Part shown: positions 47,273 to 63,362 of the stretch, piece after piece
How the letters are laid out: the number at the start of each line of letters is the position of its first letter
Position numbering within the stretch: the first letter of the stretch is position 1
DNA from: Cellulomonas sp. KRMCY2
GTDB lineage: Bacteria; Actinomycetota; Actinomycetes; Actinomycetales; Cellulomonadaceae
Direction of reading: 5' to 3'
Length of the DNA: 64,000 bases
NCBI RefSeq assembly: GCF_000526515.1
Contig: NZ_JAGF01000001.1
Location: forward strand, 2,418,001 to 2,482,000
Program-made: the position numbers and the translations under genes
The notes under the pieces: generated by a model
The model's input: only the letters and a program-made list of their open reading frames with translations
The model's database searches: none
Told to the model about the DNA's origin: nothing

Positions 47273-48424
47273 TCAGAGCCGCTCGATCACACCGGCGGCA
47301 CCCATGCCGCCGCCGATGCACATCGTCACCAGGGCCAGTCGCCCACCGGTCACCTCGAGCTCGGCGAGGGCCTTGGCGACCAGGATCGCGCCGGTCGCAC
47401 CGAGCGGGTGCCCCATGGCGAGCGCCCCGCCGTTGACGTTCACGCTCCCCCAGTCCATGCCGAGCTCGCGCATCACGGCGATCGCCTGGGCCGCGAACGC
47501 CTCATTCAGCTCGATCACGTCGATGTCCGCCAGCGTCAGGCCCGTCCGGGCGAGGACCTTCGGCACGGCGGCGACCGGCCCGATGCCCATGTACTGCGCC
47601 TCGACACCCGCCACGGCGAACCCGAGCAGGCGGGCGACCGGCGTCGCGCCGAGTTCCTGCGCCCTCCGGCTCGAGGTCAGGACGGCGAAGCCCGCGCCGT
47701 CGCTGCGCTGGGACGAGGTGCCCGCGGTGACCAGGCCGTCCTCGGCGAACACCGGGACAAGCCCCGCGAGCGCCGCCTTGGTCGTGCTCGGCCGGACGCC
47801 CTCGTCGACCGCGAACGTGGTCGTCGCGCCATCCTCGCCGACCGCGGCGACCGGGACGATCTGCGCGGTGAAGGCACCGCGGTCACGGGCGGCGGCGGCG
47901 CGCGCGTGCGAGTCGACGGCCATCTGGTCCATCTCGTCGCGGGTGACGCCCCACTTCCGGGCGACCCGCTCGGCGGTCAGACCCATCGAGATGTATGCGT
48001 CGGTGTGCTCGCGCAGCCAGGGATCCTGGTACTCCGGGGCGGCGCTCAGGACCGGGCTGCTCATGTGCTCCACGCCACCGGCGACGATGACGTCGGCCAT
48101 CCCCGCGTCGATGAGGGCCGTGGCGGTGGCGATCGCCTGCAGCCCTGACGAACAGAACCGGTTCACGGTCTGGCCGCTGACGACGTCGGGCAGCCCGGCG
48201 CGCAGCACGATGTTCCGCGCCGGGTTCATCCCCATCGTGCTCTCCGGCATGGCGCAGCCGAGAACCAGGTCGTCGATCTCGACCGGGTCGAGCTGTGGCA
48301 CCCGGGCAAGCACGCCGTTCAGCACCTCGGCGCCGAAGTCCACGGGGTGCGTGCGGGCGAGGCTGCCCTTGCCGGCCTTGCCGATTGCGCTACGTCCGTA
48401 GGCCACGACGACCGCGTTCGTCAT
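47273..48424 (-). CDS. Acetyl-CoA acetyltransferase (thiolase)
   Basis: 383 residues from ATG 48424. Nucleophile Cys in NRFCSSGLQAIATA, NEAFAAQAIAV, GGALAMGHPLGATGA with the His, and the second Cys in MCIGGGMGAAG. A degradative thiolase splitting acetoacetyl-CoA or a longer 3-ketoacyl-CoA. It is the distal gene of the 47-63 kb catabolic island and one of two thiolases there; this one is closer to FadA-type enzymes. The first step downstream of 3-hydroxybutyryl-CoA dehydrogenase could be its job. Confidence 0.92.
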   Translation of the reverse strand: MTNAVVVAYGRSAIGKAGKGSLARTHPVDFGAEVLNGVLARVPQLDPVEIDDLVLGCAMPESTMGMNPARNIVLRAGLPDVVSGQTVNRFCSSGLQAIATATALIDAGMADVIVAGGVEHMSSPVLSAAPEYQDPWLREHTDAYISMGLTAERVARKWGVTRDEMDQMAVDSHARAAAARDRGAFTAQIVPVAAVGEDGATTTFAVDEGVRPSTTKAALAGLVPVFAEDGLVTAGTSSQRSDGAGFAVLTSSRRAQELGATPVARLLGFAVAGVEAQYMGIGPVAAVPKVLARTGLTLADIDVIELNEAFAAQAIAVMRELGMDWGSVNVNGGALAMGHPLGATGAILVAKALAELEVTGGRLALVTMCIGGGMGAAGVIERL

Positions 48425-48550
48425 CTCATCGTCCCTTCGTGTGCGACCCCCGTTCGCTCACGGACGGTCAATGGATGGCTGCTTCTCGACAGTAGGGATG
48501 CAGCGCGGGATGGGGGCATTCACGGTTCGCATAAGAGCCCGGCGCCGATG

Positions 48551-49852
48551 TCAGTGGCCGGACCGCGCGATCTCCTCGGCCGGTGCGCCCTCGGCCGCCG
48601 CGCCGACCGGCCGCGTCGGGCGCACGAGCTGCCGGGAGAGCACGACGGTGACCGCCAGCCCCACCGCCGCCGCGCCGATCGCAATGAGGAACGCCTGGCT
48701 GTAGTCGCCCGACGCCTCGCCAAGCTGGGCCGCCAGGTGCGGCGCGAAGTACGCCGAGACCGAGTAGGCCGAGAACGCGAGCCCGTAGTTCATGCCCTGG
48801 TAGCGCAGGCCGAAGCGCGTCGAGACCAGCGAGGGCATCACACCCATCACGCCGCCGAAGCACACGCCGAGGCCGAACACGCCGGCCATGAACCCCGCCG
48901 CGTTGCCGCGCACCACGATCAGCAGCCCGAGGAACGCGGCGACGAAGGCGAAGATCAGGACCAGCGTGCGCGCAGTACCCAGCGTGTCCGAGACGCTGCC
49001 GAGGACGAAGCCGCCGGTCATCTTCCCCGCGGCGTACGCGCTCACCGCGAACGCCGCGGTGGTCGCGGTCATGCCGTACATCGCCACCCCGATCGGCGAG
49101 GCGTTGGCGGCGATCATCAGCCCGGAGAACGCGCCGCACACGAAGACCACGAAGATCGCCCAGAACGCGCCAGTGAGCATCATCCGCTGGGGCGGGACCG
49201 CCGTTCCCCCGCCCGACGGGCCGGCCGCCGCCTGCCTGGTCTGCGGGACACCCGCCGGCCAGAAGCCGGTCGGTGCCACCCGGATCACCACGAACGTGAG
49301 GCCCGCCACCACGACGAAGACCCCGCCGAGCACGACCATCGCGTGCCCGACGCCCGCGCCGGAGATGAGCGCACGGGCCATCGGTGCGACCACGATCGCG
49401 CCGGCGCCCTGCGAGCCCACGCTCAGACCGGCGGCCAGTCCGCGCTTGTCGGGGAAGAACCGGATCGCGTTCGCGAGCAGCGCGGAATAGGCCAGCCCCT
49501 GGCCAAGCCCGGCGACCACGCCGTAGCCGACGATCAGCTGGACCAGGCTCGTCGACGCCCCGGACAGCATCCAGCCGACGCCGAGCATCACGCCGCCCAC
49601 CAGCGCGGTCCACCGCGCCCAGCCCTTGTCGACCAGCCAGCCGCCGAGCACCATCGGGATCGGCGAGATCCCGGCGTTGACCGAGTAGGCCAGGAGCACC
49701 CCGTCGAGGCCGAAGCCCTTCTCCTGCACGAGCGGGTTCCGCAGCACGGAGAACGTGTACAGGGCGCCGAGCGCGAACATCAGGACGCACGACGCGACCA
49801 GGACGGCTTTGCGGTTCACGGGCCGAACCAGGGCGGGTGCCGCTCCGGACAT
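48551..49852 (-). CDS. OFA-family MFS transporter (oxalate/formate antiporter-like)
   Basis: 433 residues from ATG 49852 (GAGGGG upstream). Twelve helices; motifs NPLVQEKGF, GGWLVDKGWARWTAL (motif A) and GLGQGLAYSALLANAIRFFPDKRGLAAGLSVG are typical of OFA-type carboxylate carriers. It lies in the catabolic island on the same strand, so it probably imports or exchanges the organic acid that the island degrades. Length is normal. The Pro-rich loop near residues 215-235 separates the two halves. Confidence 0.88.
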   Translation of the reverse strand: MSGAAPALVRPVNRKAVLVASCVLMFALGALYTFSVLRNPLVQEKGFGLDGVLLAYSVNAGISPIPMVLGGWLVDKGWARWTALVGGVMLGVGWMLSGASTSLVQLIVGYGVVAGLGQGLAYSALLANAIRFFPDKRGLAAGLSVGSQGAGAIVVAPMARALISGAGVGHAMVVLGGVFVVVAGLTFVVIRVAPTGFWPAGVPQTRQAAAGPSGGGTAVPPQRMMLTGAFWAIFVVFVCGAFSGLMIAANASPIGVAMYGMTATTAAFAVSAYAAGKMTGGFVLGSVSDTLGTARTLVLIFAFVAAFLGLLIVVRGNAAGFMAGVFGLGVCFGGVMGVMPSLVSTRFGLRYQGMNYGLAFSAYSVSAYFAPHLAAQLGEASGDYSQAFLIAIGAAAVGLAVTVVLSRQLVRPTRPVGAAAEGAPAEEIARSGH

Positions 49853-62193: not shown

Positions 62194-62237
62194 CGGTCTG
62201 TCCTTTCGGTGGTGGTGTCGGTCGCCCGGCGCTGTGG

Positions 62238-63362
62238 TCAGGCCAGGAAGCTGGGGTGGGCGCGGATCTCCTCGATCGAGGAGTAGCCCGGGGGCAGTGA
62301 CTCGTACGGGTACAGCGGCTCCTCGCCGCCCAGGACGCGCAGGCCACCCTCGGCGAGCGCTTCCATCTCCTGCTCGCCGGGCAGCACCGTGACCGGGGCG
62401 ATGAAGGACACCAGGTCGCTCACCATCGCGGTGAACTGCGCGGAGTAGGCGATCCCGCCGGTGAGCAGGATCTGGTCGACGCTGCCGGCCCGGACCACGG
62501 CCAGCTCGCCGATCGCCTTCGCGACGCCGAGGGCCATCGCCCGGTAGACGAGCTCGGCCCGGGTGTCGCCGGCCACGATCATCGCCTCGACGTCACGCAC
62601 GTCCTGCGTGCCGAACCACGCGGCCAGGCCGGCGCCGCCGGCCAGGTACATCCGCATCTGCTGGTGGTTGCGGCTGCCGTCGTAGCAGAGGTCGGCCAGG
62701 TAGCGGGTGGGGATCCGCCCGGCGCGCTGCGGTGACATAGGGCCTTCGTCGTCGTACACCCAGTCGACGACCCGCCCGCGCTCGTGCAGTCCCAGCGAGA
62801 TGCCACCGCCCAGGTGGGCGATGACCAGGGTGAGCTCGTCGTACCGCTTGCCGACTGATGCGGCATAGGTGCGGCCGGCCTTTCGGGTGTTGAGCAGGTG
62901 CAGCACCGGCATGTTCACCACCTCGGGGATGCCGGTGATCTTGGCGACCGGGTCGACGCCGTCCACGCAGGTGGGGTCGTAGATGATCACGGGCACGTCG
63001 GTCCCCGCGACGAGCTCCACACCGATCAGGGCGGAGAGGGACGAGGCATGCTGCGCGGCCGGCGCGTACCTGAGCGTGGCGATCATCAGGTCGTTGACCT
63101 CGTAGGCGCCCGCCTCCGGGACGTGCCAGATGGTCCCGGCACGCGACACGACCATGGCCAGGTCGGCGACGGAGCAGCCATGCTCGGCCAGGAACCCCGT
63201 GACCTGCGCGGTGCGGTAGGCGAGCTGATCGAGCACCTTGGGCATCGTGGCGAGGTCGGCCAGCGGCACGTCCAGCGAGTCCTTGTGCACCATGGTCGCG
63301 TCCTCGAACCACGCGATCTTGGTCGACGTGGACCCGCAGTTGATCGCCAGGAGGCGCTTCAT
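62238..63362 (-). CDS. buk: Butyrate kinase-like acyl kinase
   Basis: 374 residues of the acetokinase family: INCGSTSTKIAWFED at the start, VIIYDPTCVDGVDPVAKITG near 130, HLGGGISLGLHERGRVVDW near 200 and ILLTGGIAYS near 295. The length and the DPTCVD segment fit butyrate kinase. It transfers phosphate from an acyl phosphate to ADP. First gene of the leftward island, 44 bases ahead of the BKACE gene; with the Ptb-like gene it gives substrate-level phosphorylation. Such a pair is typical of clostridia and unusual in actinobacteria. Confidence 0.9.
   Translation of the reverse strand: MKRLLAINCGSTSTKIAWFEDATMVHKDSLDVPLADLATMPKVLDQLAYRTAQVTGFLAEHGCSVADLAMVVSRAGTIWHVPEAGAYEVNDLMIATLRYAPAAQHASSLSALIGVELVAGTDVPVIIYDPTCVDGVDPVAKITGIPEVVNMPVLHLLNTRKAGRTYAASVGKRYDELTLVIAHLGGGISLGLHERGRVVDWVYDDEGPMSPQRAGRIPTRYLADLCYDGSRNHQQMRMYLAGGAGLAAWFGTQDVRDVEAMIVAGDTRAELVYRAMALGVAKAIGELAVVRAGSVDQILLTGGIAYSAQFTAMVSDLVSFIAPVTVLPGEQEMEALAEGGLRVLGGEEPLYPYESLPPGYSSIEEIRAHPSFLA

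What the first reader, a model, noticed from the sequence alone, without database searches (positions are those of the whole stretch)
47273..63362. Actinobacterial operon joining beta-keto-acid cleavage, lactonase, Ptb/Buk ATP formation and 4-hydroxybutyryl-CoA chemistry
Eleven intact enzyme genes and a carrier gene lie on one strand, many overlapping by 1-4 bases, behind a divergent LysR gene. Known family roles give a route: lactone opening, keto-acid cleavage to acetoacetate plus acyl-CoA, disposal of acetoacetate by CoA-transferase and thiolase, and ATP from the acyl-CoA through Ptb and Buk. A second module (fused CoA-transferase, AbfD, Hbd, thiolase) handles a 4-hydroxyacyl-CoA. The lysine-fermentation marker genes (aminomutases, 3,5-diaminohexanoate dehydrogenase, 3-aminobutyryl-CoA lyase) are absent, so the substrate is probably different and may be undescribed.
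Basis: partly seen in the sequence, partly recalled or inferred. Interest (0 to 1): 0.87.

Follow-up and report, generated by a model that had tools for sequence, protein, structure and literature searches.

The report
Ring-opening catabolic gene island, substrate unknown
An actinobacterium carries about 25 kb of neighbouring genes that look like a pathway for opening a polyphenol-type ring and harvesting energy from the pieces; it is a variant of a known phloroglucinol pathway, its substrate is not yet known, and related clusters in gut bacteria make it a candidate for a tea- and cocoa-flavanol conversion.

Summary
The gene run is real: 12 enzyme genes and one carrier on the minus strand, one enzyme more than reported (a 701-aa OYE flavoprotein was missed). 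The window cuts it short: past its end lie a 6-oxocamphor-hydrolase-like (OCH) beta-diketone hydrolase, a carrier, a vinylphenol-reductase-like flavoprotein and an electron-transfer unit. A sister species keeps this core but has no abfD. The BKACE belongs to a clade with V/I/M where the lysine enzyme has Glu and triacetate lyase Trp; OCH flanks 19 of 31 non-aromatic-type and 0 of 25 aromatic-type BKACE loci, the phloroglucinol cyclohydrolase 1 and 10. Three Flavonifractor-type genomes carry both kinds; their V-type one has OCH, OCH, BKACE, PTE in a row. Best reading: fission of a side-chain-bearing phloroglucinol-type ring, acetoacetate disposal, ATP through Ptb-Buk, and 4-hydroxyacyl-CoA/lactone handling. 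Every substrate is inferred. The boldest reading, flavan-3-ol A-ring to aryl-gamma-valerolactone, is untested.

The parts
62238..63362 (-). buk: butyrate kinase family (374 aa)
   Evidence: TIGR02707 362.7 bits over cut-off 289.1; 60 and 64% to Herbinix L034 and Sinanaerobacter L045
61363..62193 (-). BKACE, aliphatic-pocket type (V17), 276 aa
   Evidence: PF05853 E 3e-99; best PDB 2y7d Kce; V17 in the Kce Glu14 / CsTAL Trp16 column; clade support 97/91
60368..61366 (-). PTE-family metal hydrolase, lactonase-like (332 aa)
   Evidence: PF02126 E 7.9e-62; best solved relatives are PTE-family enzymes; HEH, K, H, H, D motifs present (their role as metal ligands and the lactonase activity of relatives are recalled)
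59403..60371 (-). ptb: phosphate acyltransferase (322 aa)
   Evidence: PF01515; P_butyryltrans TIGR02706 235.8 bits, below its cut-off 410.5
58216..59403 (-). thl1: thiolase (395 aa)
   Evidence: TIGR01930 415.2 over 240.55
57524..58204 (-). atoD: CoA-transferase alpha subunit
   Evidence: TIGR02429 238.5 over 128.5; start
56838..57527 (-). atoA: CoA-transferase beta subunit
   Evidence: TIGR02428 287.6 over 243.55
56381..56837 (-). remnant of a zinc alcohol dehydrogenase (two pieces); the carrier gene that precedes it in G416 is not in this place
   Evidence: two tblastn pieces 75 and 76% identical to the intact G416 dehydrogenase
54275..56380 (-).
   Evidence: PF00724 + PF07992; best PDB 6qkg NCR; 85% in G416
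52430..54007 (-). abfD-like 4-hydroxyacyl-CoA dehydratase, divergent sub-family (525 aa)
   Evidence: best PDB 1u8v, 313 bits, against 822 bits for a canonical AbfD; C98, C102, H291, C298 align with its C, C, H, C (Fe-S ligand role recalled); sub-family 47-64% identical to it
51582..52433 (-). hbd: 3-hydroxyacyl-CoA dehydrogenase (283 aa)
   Evidence: PF02737 and PF00725; PRK05808 367.6 bits, cut-off 408
49902..51497 (-). fused CoA-transferase, FadX-like (531 aa; alternative start 51521)
   Evidence: PF01144 in two stretches; FadX model 394.3 bits, cut-off 750
48551..49852 (-). MFS monocarboxylate-type carrier
   Evidence: NF049980 L-lactate MFS transporter 326.7 over 320
47273..48424 (-). thl2: second thiolase (383 aa)
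   Evidence: TIGR01930 415.8 over 240.55; 58% to Herbinix, 54-55% to the Flavonifractor cluster thiolase
63545..64000 (+). LysR regulator, first part (ends at 64450, outside the window)
   Evidence: 301-aa frame; 83% in G416

Best explanation
It is a catabolic island, larger than the window, for a ring compound of the 1,3,5-trioxygenated (phloroglucinol) class that carries a side chain. Inferred steps: reductases (the vinylphenol-reductase-like flavoprotein with its electron-transfer unit; the OYE) prepare the substrate; the OCH-like hydrolase opens the cyclic beta-diketone by hydrolytic C-C cleavage, giving a 3,5-dioxo acid; the wide-pocket BKACE cleaves that acid with acetyl-CoA into acetoacetate plus a beta-ketoacyl-CoA that keeps the side chain; one thiolase shortens this, AtoDA and the other thiolase turn acetoacetate into acetyl-CoA; Ptb and Buk make ATP from the side-chain acyl-CoA. 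If that acid is a 4-hydroxy acid, the PTE enzyme opens its gamma-lactone, the fused CoA-transferase activates it, and the AbfD-like dehydratase and Hbd lead it into beta-oxidation (a crotonase would be needed and was not looked for). Shown by computation: family assignments, kept active-site residues, conservation in G416, the BKACE clade and its neighbours. Inferred: every substrate, every activity and the order of steps.
For: An OCH-like gene lies 870-1940 bases past the window end; the four positions H45, H122, H145, D154 of 6-oxocamphor hydrolase (roles recalled) are kept in 25 of 25 rows compared (24 distinct genes, only frames over 250 aa taken). Across 56 BKACE loci OCH-like genes flank 19 of 31 non-aromatic-type and 0 of 25 aromatic-type BKACEs; the phloroglucinol cyclohydrolase DPGC 1 of 31 (L114, outside the clade) and 10 of 25. 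The V/I/M type is one clade of 28 rows, support 97/91. In C. scatologenes triacetate lyase that position is Trp (PMC10470551): loss of the bulky residue fits a larger acyl end (inference). Six genomes (G490, G491, G492, G401, G406, G409) hold both a DPGC at 75-100% to the query and a V/I-type BKACE with OCH on the same contig. The AbfD-like sub-family, Hbd and a V-type BKACE lie in one same-strand run in an unrelated Oscillospiraceae genome (AbfD 57%). Ptb falls below the butyryl-specific cut-off. A GH106 alpha-L-rhamnosidase gene lies by the island in G416.
Against: No enzyme was assayed here, and I found no known substrate for the V/I/M BKACE clade. That clade has one origin on the tree, so its link with OCH rests on one lineage and its transfers, and the counts overstate independence; L143, L160-162 and L172 were fetched for BKACE/OCH similarity. 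One Trp-type row (L053) branches at the base of the V/I/M side. OCH, FAD reductase and OYE belong to wide families. The window genome has no phloretin-hydrolase-family gene, and no flavonoid gene was shown in it. In three Flavonifractor-type genomes a canonical AbfD sits beside a Trp-type BKACE, so AbfD does not track the wide-pocket type. abfD is absent from G416, hence not needed for the core.
Confidence: 0.45

Rival explanations
1. Plain phloroglucinol degradation by non-homologous parts: a flavoprotein or nothing in place of phloroglucinol reductase, the OCH-like enzyme in place of DPGC, BKACE acting on triacetate as in Clostridium scatologenes.
For: Similar downstream set (BKACE-family lyase, CoA-transferase, thiolase, butyrate kinase, MFS) in PMC10470551; the window genome and G416 have no DPGC match, so the OCH-like enzyme could replace it.
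Against: Trp/Phe of the phloroglucinol-linked BKACEs is Val here; six genomes keep both systems; PTE, AbfD and OYE stay unexplained.
Confidence: 0.2
2. One reading: PTE opens a beta-keto delta-lactone or pyrone (for example triacetic acid lactone or its dihydro form), BKACE then cleaves the acid; the OCH-like gene serves something else.
For: PTE overlaps BKACE by 4 bases and is conserved in G416 at dN/dS 0.21; a PTE lies next to the V-type BKACE in L160-L162 and about 9 kb from the I-type one in L071.
Against: 25 of 31 non-aromatic-type loci have no PTE in the stretch held, and 14 of those 25 have OCH (several stretches are short); the reductases are not explained.
Confidence: 0.15
3. The abfD-hbd-CoA-transferase-carrier-thl2 half is an independent 4-hydroxybutyrate or gamma-butyrolactone cassette that merely landed beside the ring-fission island (this can be true together with the best explanation of the other half).
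For: abfD has no match in G416 or in the 17 other sampled genus genomes; the carrier resembles monocarboxylate transporters; in seven Actinomycetota loci of the same AbfD sub-family (L113, L115-L120) no BKACE was found in the stretch.
Against: Its AbfD is not the canonical type (313 bits to 1u8v against 822 for a canonical one); thl2 belongs to the core in G416; in L072/L108 a member of its sub-family (249 bits to 1u8v) lies in one run with Hbd and a V-type BKACE.
Confidence: 0.35
4. Another cyclic beta-diketone (a terpenoid like 6-oxocamphor, or a cyclohexane-1,3-dione) rather than an aromatic polyphenol.
For: The closest solved relative of the hydrolase family is 6-oxocamphor hydrolase (run with the L035 member).
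Against: BKACE needs a beta-keto acid; a plain 1,3-diketone ring opens to a delta-keto acid (chemistry, inference). The match to 1o8u is distant (E 2.6e-31).
Confidence: 0.12

Closest known systems
Phloroglucinol degradation cluster of Clostridium scatologenes (PGR-DPGC-TfD-TAL; PMC10470551)
   Same: BKACE-family lyase, CoA-transferase, thiolase, MFS carrier, regulator; butyrate kinase induced; route to acetoacetate/acetoacetyl-CoA and ATP
   Different: No DPGC match in the window genome; OCH-like hydrolase instead; Val for Trp in the BKACE pocket; PTE, OYE, AbfD-like added
Lysine fermentation (Kce)
   Same: BKACE family and reaction type
   Different: Glu14 not kept, score under the KCE cut-off; none of the island's genes was assigned to another lysine step (lysine genes were not searched genome-wide)
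6-oxocamphor hydrolase / ALR4455 beta-diketone hydrolase
   Same: Crotonase family, H45/H122/H145/D154 kept
   Different: Distant in sequence; linked to BKACE genes
4-hydroxybutyryl-CoA dehydratase AbfD (1u8v)
   Same: Four Fe-S ligand positions kept
   Different: Separate sub-family: 313 bits to 1u8v against 822 for a canonical member
Second BKACE cluster of Flavonifractor-type genomes (L160-L162)
   Same: LysR, MFS, AtoDA, thl2-like thiolase, V-type BKACE, PTE, OCH
   Different: Two OCH genes; no Ptb/Buk, OYE or AbfD-like match in the 20-kb stretches

Membership tests
BKACE (PF05853) | Family model match and His-x-His metal motif | tested here: met
   332 bits over cut-off 24.8; HLH at 49-51 (metal role recalled)
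[quoted passage not shown] NCBIfam cut-off | tested here: not met
   Val17 in that column (the Glu of the aligned TGAE in 2y7d is taken to be Glu14); 292.8 bits against 382
Triacetate acetoacetate-lyase (TAL) | Trp in that column as in CsTAL | tested here: not met
   Val; W/F in 17 of 18 DPGC- or cyclase-linked loci, V/I/M in 16 of 16 OCH-linked loci, mixed in 17 loci without such a label. Whether Val excludes triacetate is not tested.
Phloroglucinol pathway PGR-DPGC-TfD-TAL | DPGC cyclohydrolase present | tested here: not met
   no match in G000 or G416
OCH-like beta-diketone hydrolase (gene outside window) | Active-site H45, H122, H145, D154 | tested here: met
   kept in the window genome's protein and in all 25 rows compared; residue roles recalled
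OCH-like beta-diketone hydrolase (gene outside window) | Hydrolysis of a cyclic beta-diketone | not testable with these tools
   needs assay
AbfD, 4-hydroxybutyryl-CoA dehydratase | [4Fe-4S] ligands C, C, H, C | tested here: met
   C98, C102, H291, C298 (ligand positions recalled)
AbfD, 4-hydroxybutyryl-CoA dehydratase | Acts on 4-hydroxybutyryl-CoA | not testable with these tools
   sub-family differs
Butyrate kinase | TIGR02707 cut-off | tested here: met
   362.7 over 289.1
Phosphate butyryltransferase | TIGR02706 cut-off | tested here: not met
   235.8 against 410.5; general PTA/PTB family met
PTE-like lactonase | Binuclear metal ligands | tested here: met
   HEH, K, H, H, D motifs present (ligands recalled)
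PTE-like lactonase | Lactone hydrolysis | not testable with these tools
   needs assay

The most novel reading that the evidence does not exclude
The OCH/wide-pocket-BKACE cluster is the A-ring fission pathway of flavan-3-ols: the alkyl-phloroglucinol ring of 1-aryl-3-(2,4,6-trihydroxyphenyl)propan-2-ol is hydrolysed by the OCH-like enzyme, BKACE and thiolase remove acetoacetate and acetyl-CoA, leaving 4-hydroxy-5-arylvaleryl-CoA, which Ptb-Buk turn into ATP and the acid that closes to aryl-gamma-valerolactone; PTE is the valerolactonase and the AbfD-like enzyme the 4-hydroxy-5-arylvaleryl-CoA dehydratase. The carbon count fits (inference), and Flavonifractor plautii is reported to make such valerolactones from diarylpropan-2-ol (PMC8145700 passage); the genomes with the cluster seen here are near relatives named Flavonifractor or Pseudoflavonifractor, not F. 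plautii itself.
Probability: 0.22. Interest if true: 0.88.

Novelty: new variant of a known kind. Interest (0 to 1): 0.62.

Why it matters
It separates BKACE ring-fission clusters into two kinds by one pocket residue and by their ring hydrolase, and gives a short list of genes to test for cleaving substituted phloroglucinol rings. If the bold reading is right it would supply genes for forming and degrading aryl-gamma-valerolactones, major gut metabolites of tea and cocoa flavanols; a 2022 review's table gives the enzyme as NA in the row for Eggerthella lenta and Flavonifractor plautii that leads from catechin to the valerolactone (row labelled C-ring cleavage; PMC9560768 passage).

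Tried and rejected
Lysine fermentation: rejected on Glu14 and cut-off. HpaB-type phenol monooxygenase for the AbfD-like gene: rejected, all four Fe-S ligand positions are kept and AbfD structures score highest. A single conserved 16-kb operon: rejected, G416 lacks the abfD block in the stretch and abfD genome-wide. That AbfD tracks the wide-pocket BKACE: not upheld; abfD flanks 2 of 31 and 0 of 25, but a canonical AbfD lies beside a Trp-type BKACE in three Flavonifractor-type genomes, and no BKACE lies near the sub-family's gene in L113 and L115-L120 (L113 has two cyclase-family genes, 29 and 35% to DPGC, 3-4 kb away). 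OYE as marker: too widespread, 335 of 396 genomes have some match. Viral contigs: no match to the OYE. Phloretin-hydrolase family PF18089: match in 6 of 14 genomes: none in G000, 83 bits in G416 some 35-47 kb from the island, 29 bits in G410, 238-272 bits in G186 and three Flavonifractor-type genomes. Literature: searches of an open-licence library; I saw only the rows listed (20, 27, 3, 20 of 57, 15 of 25, 20 of 91,539 and 15 of 2,774) and among them no assigned substrate for this cluster type and no valerolactone genes; only PMC10470551 was close. In one search the dN/dS row for OCH was read out of frame (wrong end coordinate) and is discarded; one search gives 79% identity. A notebook line says 16 of 17 aromatic; the recount is 17 of 18. 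In one search the 31 non-aromatic rows include L077 (column missing), L081 (R) and L114 (M), which lie outside the clade of 28; L143's OCH is on the adjoining stretch L144, and the OCH genes of G399 and G406 lie on the BKACE's contig but beyond the stretch searched, so 19 is a lower count. L077 and L081 were dropped before the tree (54 rows); L053 was left out of the column comparison. No structure prediction was run.

Full report
Observation. The minus-strand run from 63362 down to 47273 holds buk, BKACE, PTE, ptb, thl1, atoD, atoA, a gap, OYE, abfD-like, hbd, fused CoA-transferase, an MFS carrier and thl2: 12 enzyme genes and one carrier. Five junctions overlap by 1-4 bases. The genome (4.5 Mb, one contig) has one BKACE match.

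The window cuts the island. On L003, which continues the genome from the window's last base, the LysR gene is followed by minus-strand genes: an OCH-like crotonase (870-1940), an MFS carrier (2109-3470), a flavoprotein (3590-5095) whose best NCBIfam match is vinyl phenol reductase (289 bits, cut-off 600) and whose best solved relative is a flavocytochrome c fumarate reductase, and an electron-transfer unit read from two overlapping frames (about 5131-8237; NuoG-, GltD- and ferredoxin-like). A similar set, OCH-buk-BKACE-ptb with LysR, MFS and the reductase pair, occurs in Herbinix (L034, with a thl2-like thiolase 58%) and Sinanaerobacter (L045/L170, thiolase 61%), with buk 60 and 64% and ptb 61 and 65-66% identical.

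Sister species. Of 18 other genomes of the genus in the sample only G416 has the BKACE (90%); among 396 Actinomycetota genomes sampled the best match outside the genome itself was 46% (G186). G416 keeps electron-transfer unit, reductase, MFS, thl2, OCH, LysR, buk, BKACE, PTE, ptb, thl1, atoDA, a carrier, a zinc alcohol dehydrogenase and OYE, and has no abfD match. In the window the dehydrogenase survives as two pieces in the 457-base gap. Eleven shared genes show dN/dS 0.15-0.33. Beside the G416 island lies a GH106 alpha-L-rhamnosidase gene, an enzyme type known to act on flavonoid rhamnosides among others (recalled).

Two kinds of BKACE. The named-genome scan returned 52 loci scattered over Bacillota, Pseudomonadota and others. 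The column that is Glu14 in the lysine enzyme and Trp16 in C. scatologenes triacetate lyase (PMC10470551, section 9; the column match is my alignment) is Trp/Phe in 17 of 18 loci linked to DPGC or to a second cyclase-family gene (the exception is L114, Met), Val/Ile/Met in 16 of 16 loci linked to OCH, and mixed in 17 loci without such a label. The Val/Ile/Met rows other than L114 (28) form one clade, support 97/91; the window and G416 group with Herbinix (96/83); one Trp row, L053, branches at the base of that side. Thirteen columns share no residue between 28 V/I/M and 24 W/F rows (score 1.0 as printed; L053 left out). Of 56 loci, non-aromatic against aromatic: OCH 19 of 31 and 0 of 25; FAD reductase 12 and 0; PTE 6 and 0; Ptb and Buk 5 and 0; OYE 3 and 0; abfD 2 and 0; thiolase 22 and 6; atoD 18 and 7; DPGC 1 and 10; cyclase-19 0 and 7. 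The loci are not independent, the V/I/M type has one origin, and some loci were fetched for their similarity.

Flavonifractor-type genomes. Three (G490 Pseudoflavonifractor phocaeensis, G491 Flavonifractor sp. An112, G492 Candidatus Flavonifractor intestinigallinarum; names) carry a DPGC-linked Trp-type BKACE and, elsewhere, LysR, MFS, a TfD-like dehydrogenase, MFS, AtoDA, a thl2-like thiolase, OCH, OCH, V-type BKACE and a PTE (26-28% to the window's). G401, G406 and G409 also have a DPGC at 75-93% and a V/I-type BKACE with OCH on the same contig. A cell that keeps both is unlikely to use both for plain phloroglucinol (inference).

The 4-hydroxyacyl block. The AbfD-like protein has the four Fe-S ligand positions but scores 313 bits to 1u8v where a canonical AbfD from Flavonifractor scores 822. 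Its sub-family (47-64% identical to it) is in G186, G410, G413 and other genomes; the remaining full-length matches are 40% or lower. In an Oscillospiraceae genome a member lies in one run with SDRs, a crotonase-like gene, Hbd, a TfD-like gene and a V-type BKACE (L072/L108). Against a strict link: seven other Actinomycetota loci of the sub-family show no BKACE (L113, L115-L120), and in three Flavonifractor-type genomes a canonical AbfD lies beside a Trp-type BKACE.

Mechanism, with the status of each step. Shown by computation: family identity, kept residues, neighbourhoods. Inferred: reductive preparation; OCH-type hydrolysis of a cyclic beta-diketone; BKACE cleavage to acetoacetate and an acyl-CoA; AtoDA/thiolase disposal; ATP through Ptb-Buk; lactone opening by PTE and 4-hydroxyacyl-CoA dehydration. 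Only a 1,3,5-trioxygenated six-ring opens to a beta-keto acid directly (chemistry, inference), which is why the phloroglucinol class is favoured. With an aryl-propan-2-ol side chain the residue after loss of acetoacetate and acetyl-CoA is 4-hydroxy-5-arylvalerate, the open form of the aryl-gamma-valerolactones. Reviews report F. plautii in this conversion (passages of PMC8145700, and PMC13057332), and PMC9560768 gives the enzyme as NA (passage). This is a hypothesis: the window's host is not Flavonifractor, F. plautii itself was not examined, and the host lacks a phloretin-hydrolase-family gene.

Novelty. The downstream logic is known from phloroglucinol fermentation (PMC10470551). What appears new is the OCH-linked, wide-pocket BKACE type, its pairing with PTE, Ptb-Buk and an AbfD-like block, and its presence in an actinobacterium. 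Among the rows listed by searches of an open-licence library I saw no paper assigning a substrate to this cluster type; most subscription papers are not in it.

Noticed in passing
L183, L184, L185 (G491, G492, G490): A third BKACE cluster in Flavonifractor-type genomes: Trp-type BKACE next to canonical AbfD (38-39% to the window's; 822 bits to 1u8v for the L183 one), thiolase, an unmatched ~396-aa gene (iron-ADH-like by eye, not searched), MFS, a gene matching the sigma-54-type regulator set; in L183 and L184 also a TfD-like and a DPGC-like gene.
   Followed up: partly
G402, G404, G412: 10, 6 and 6 BKACE matches (aligned pieces, some of them halves of one gene) in single genomes, suggesting further unassigned beta-keto-acid pathways.
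   Followed up: no
L115, L118 (G176, G079): Members of the AbfD-like sub-family without BKACE nearby, next to a TetR-like gene by eye; function unknown.
   Followed up: no
L114 (G186): Actinomycetota genome with a DPGC-TfD-SDR-BKACE cluster whose BKACE has Met, not Trp, in the pocket column, on a long branch.
   Followed up: no
L147 (G346), G271: Tandem OYE flavoproteins, 36-40% identical to the window's, in one genus; the G346 stretch was fetched but not annotated.
   Followed up: no
L143:3978-8101: GH106 alpha-L-rhamnosidase and a Gfo/Idh/MocA oxidoreductase directly downstream of the island in G416; in the window that place is taken by the abfD block.
   Followed up: partly
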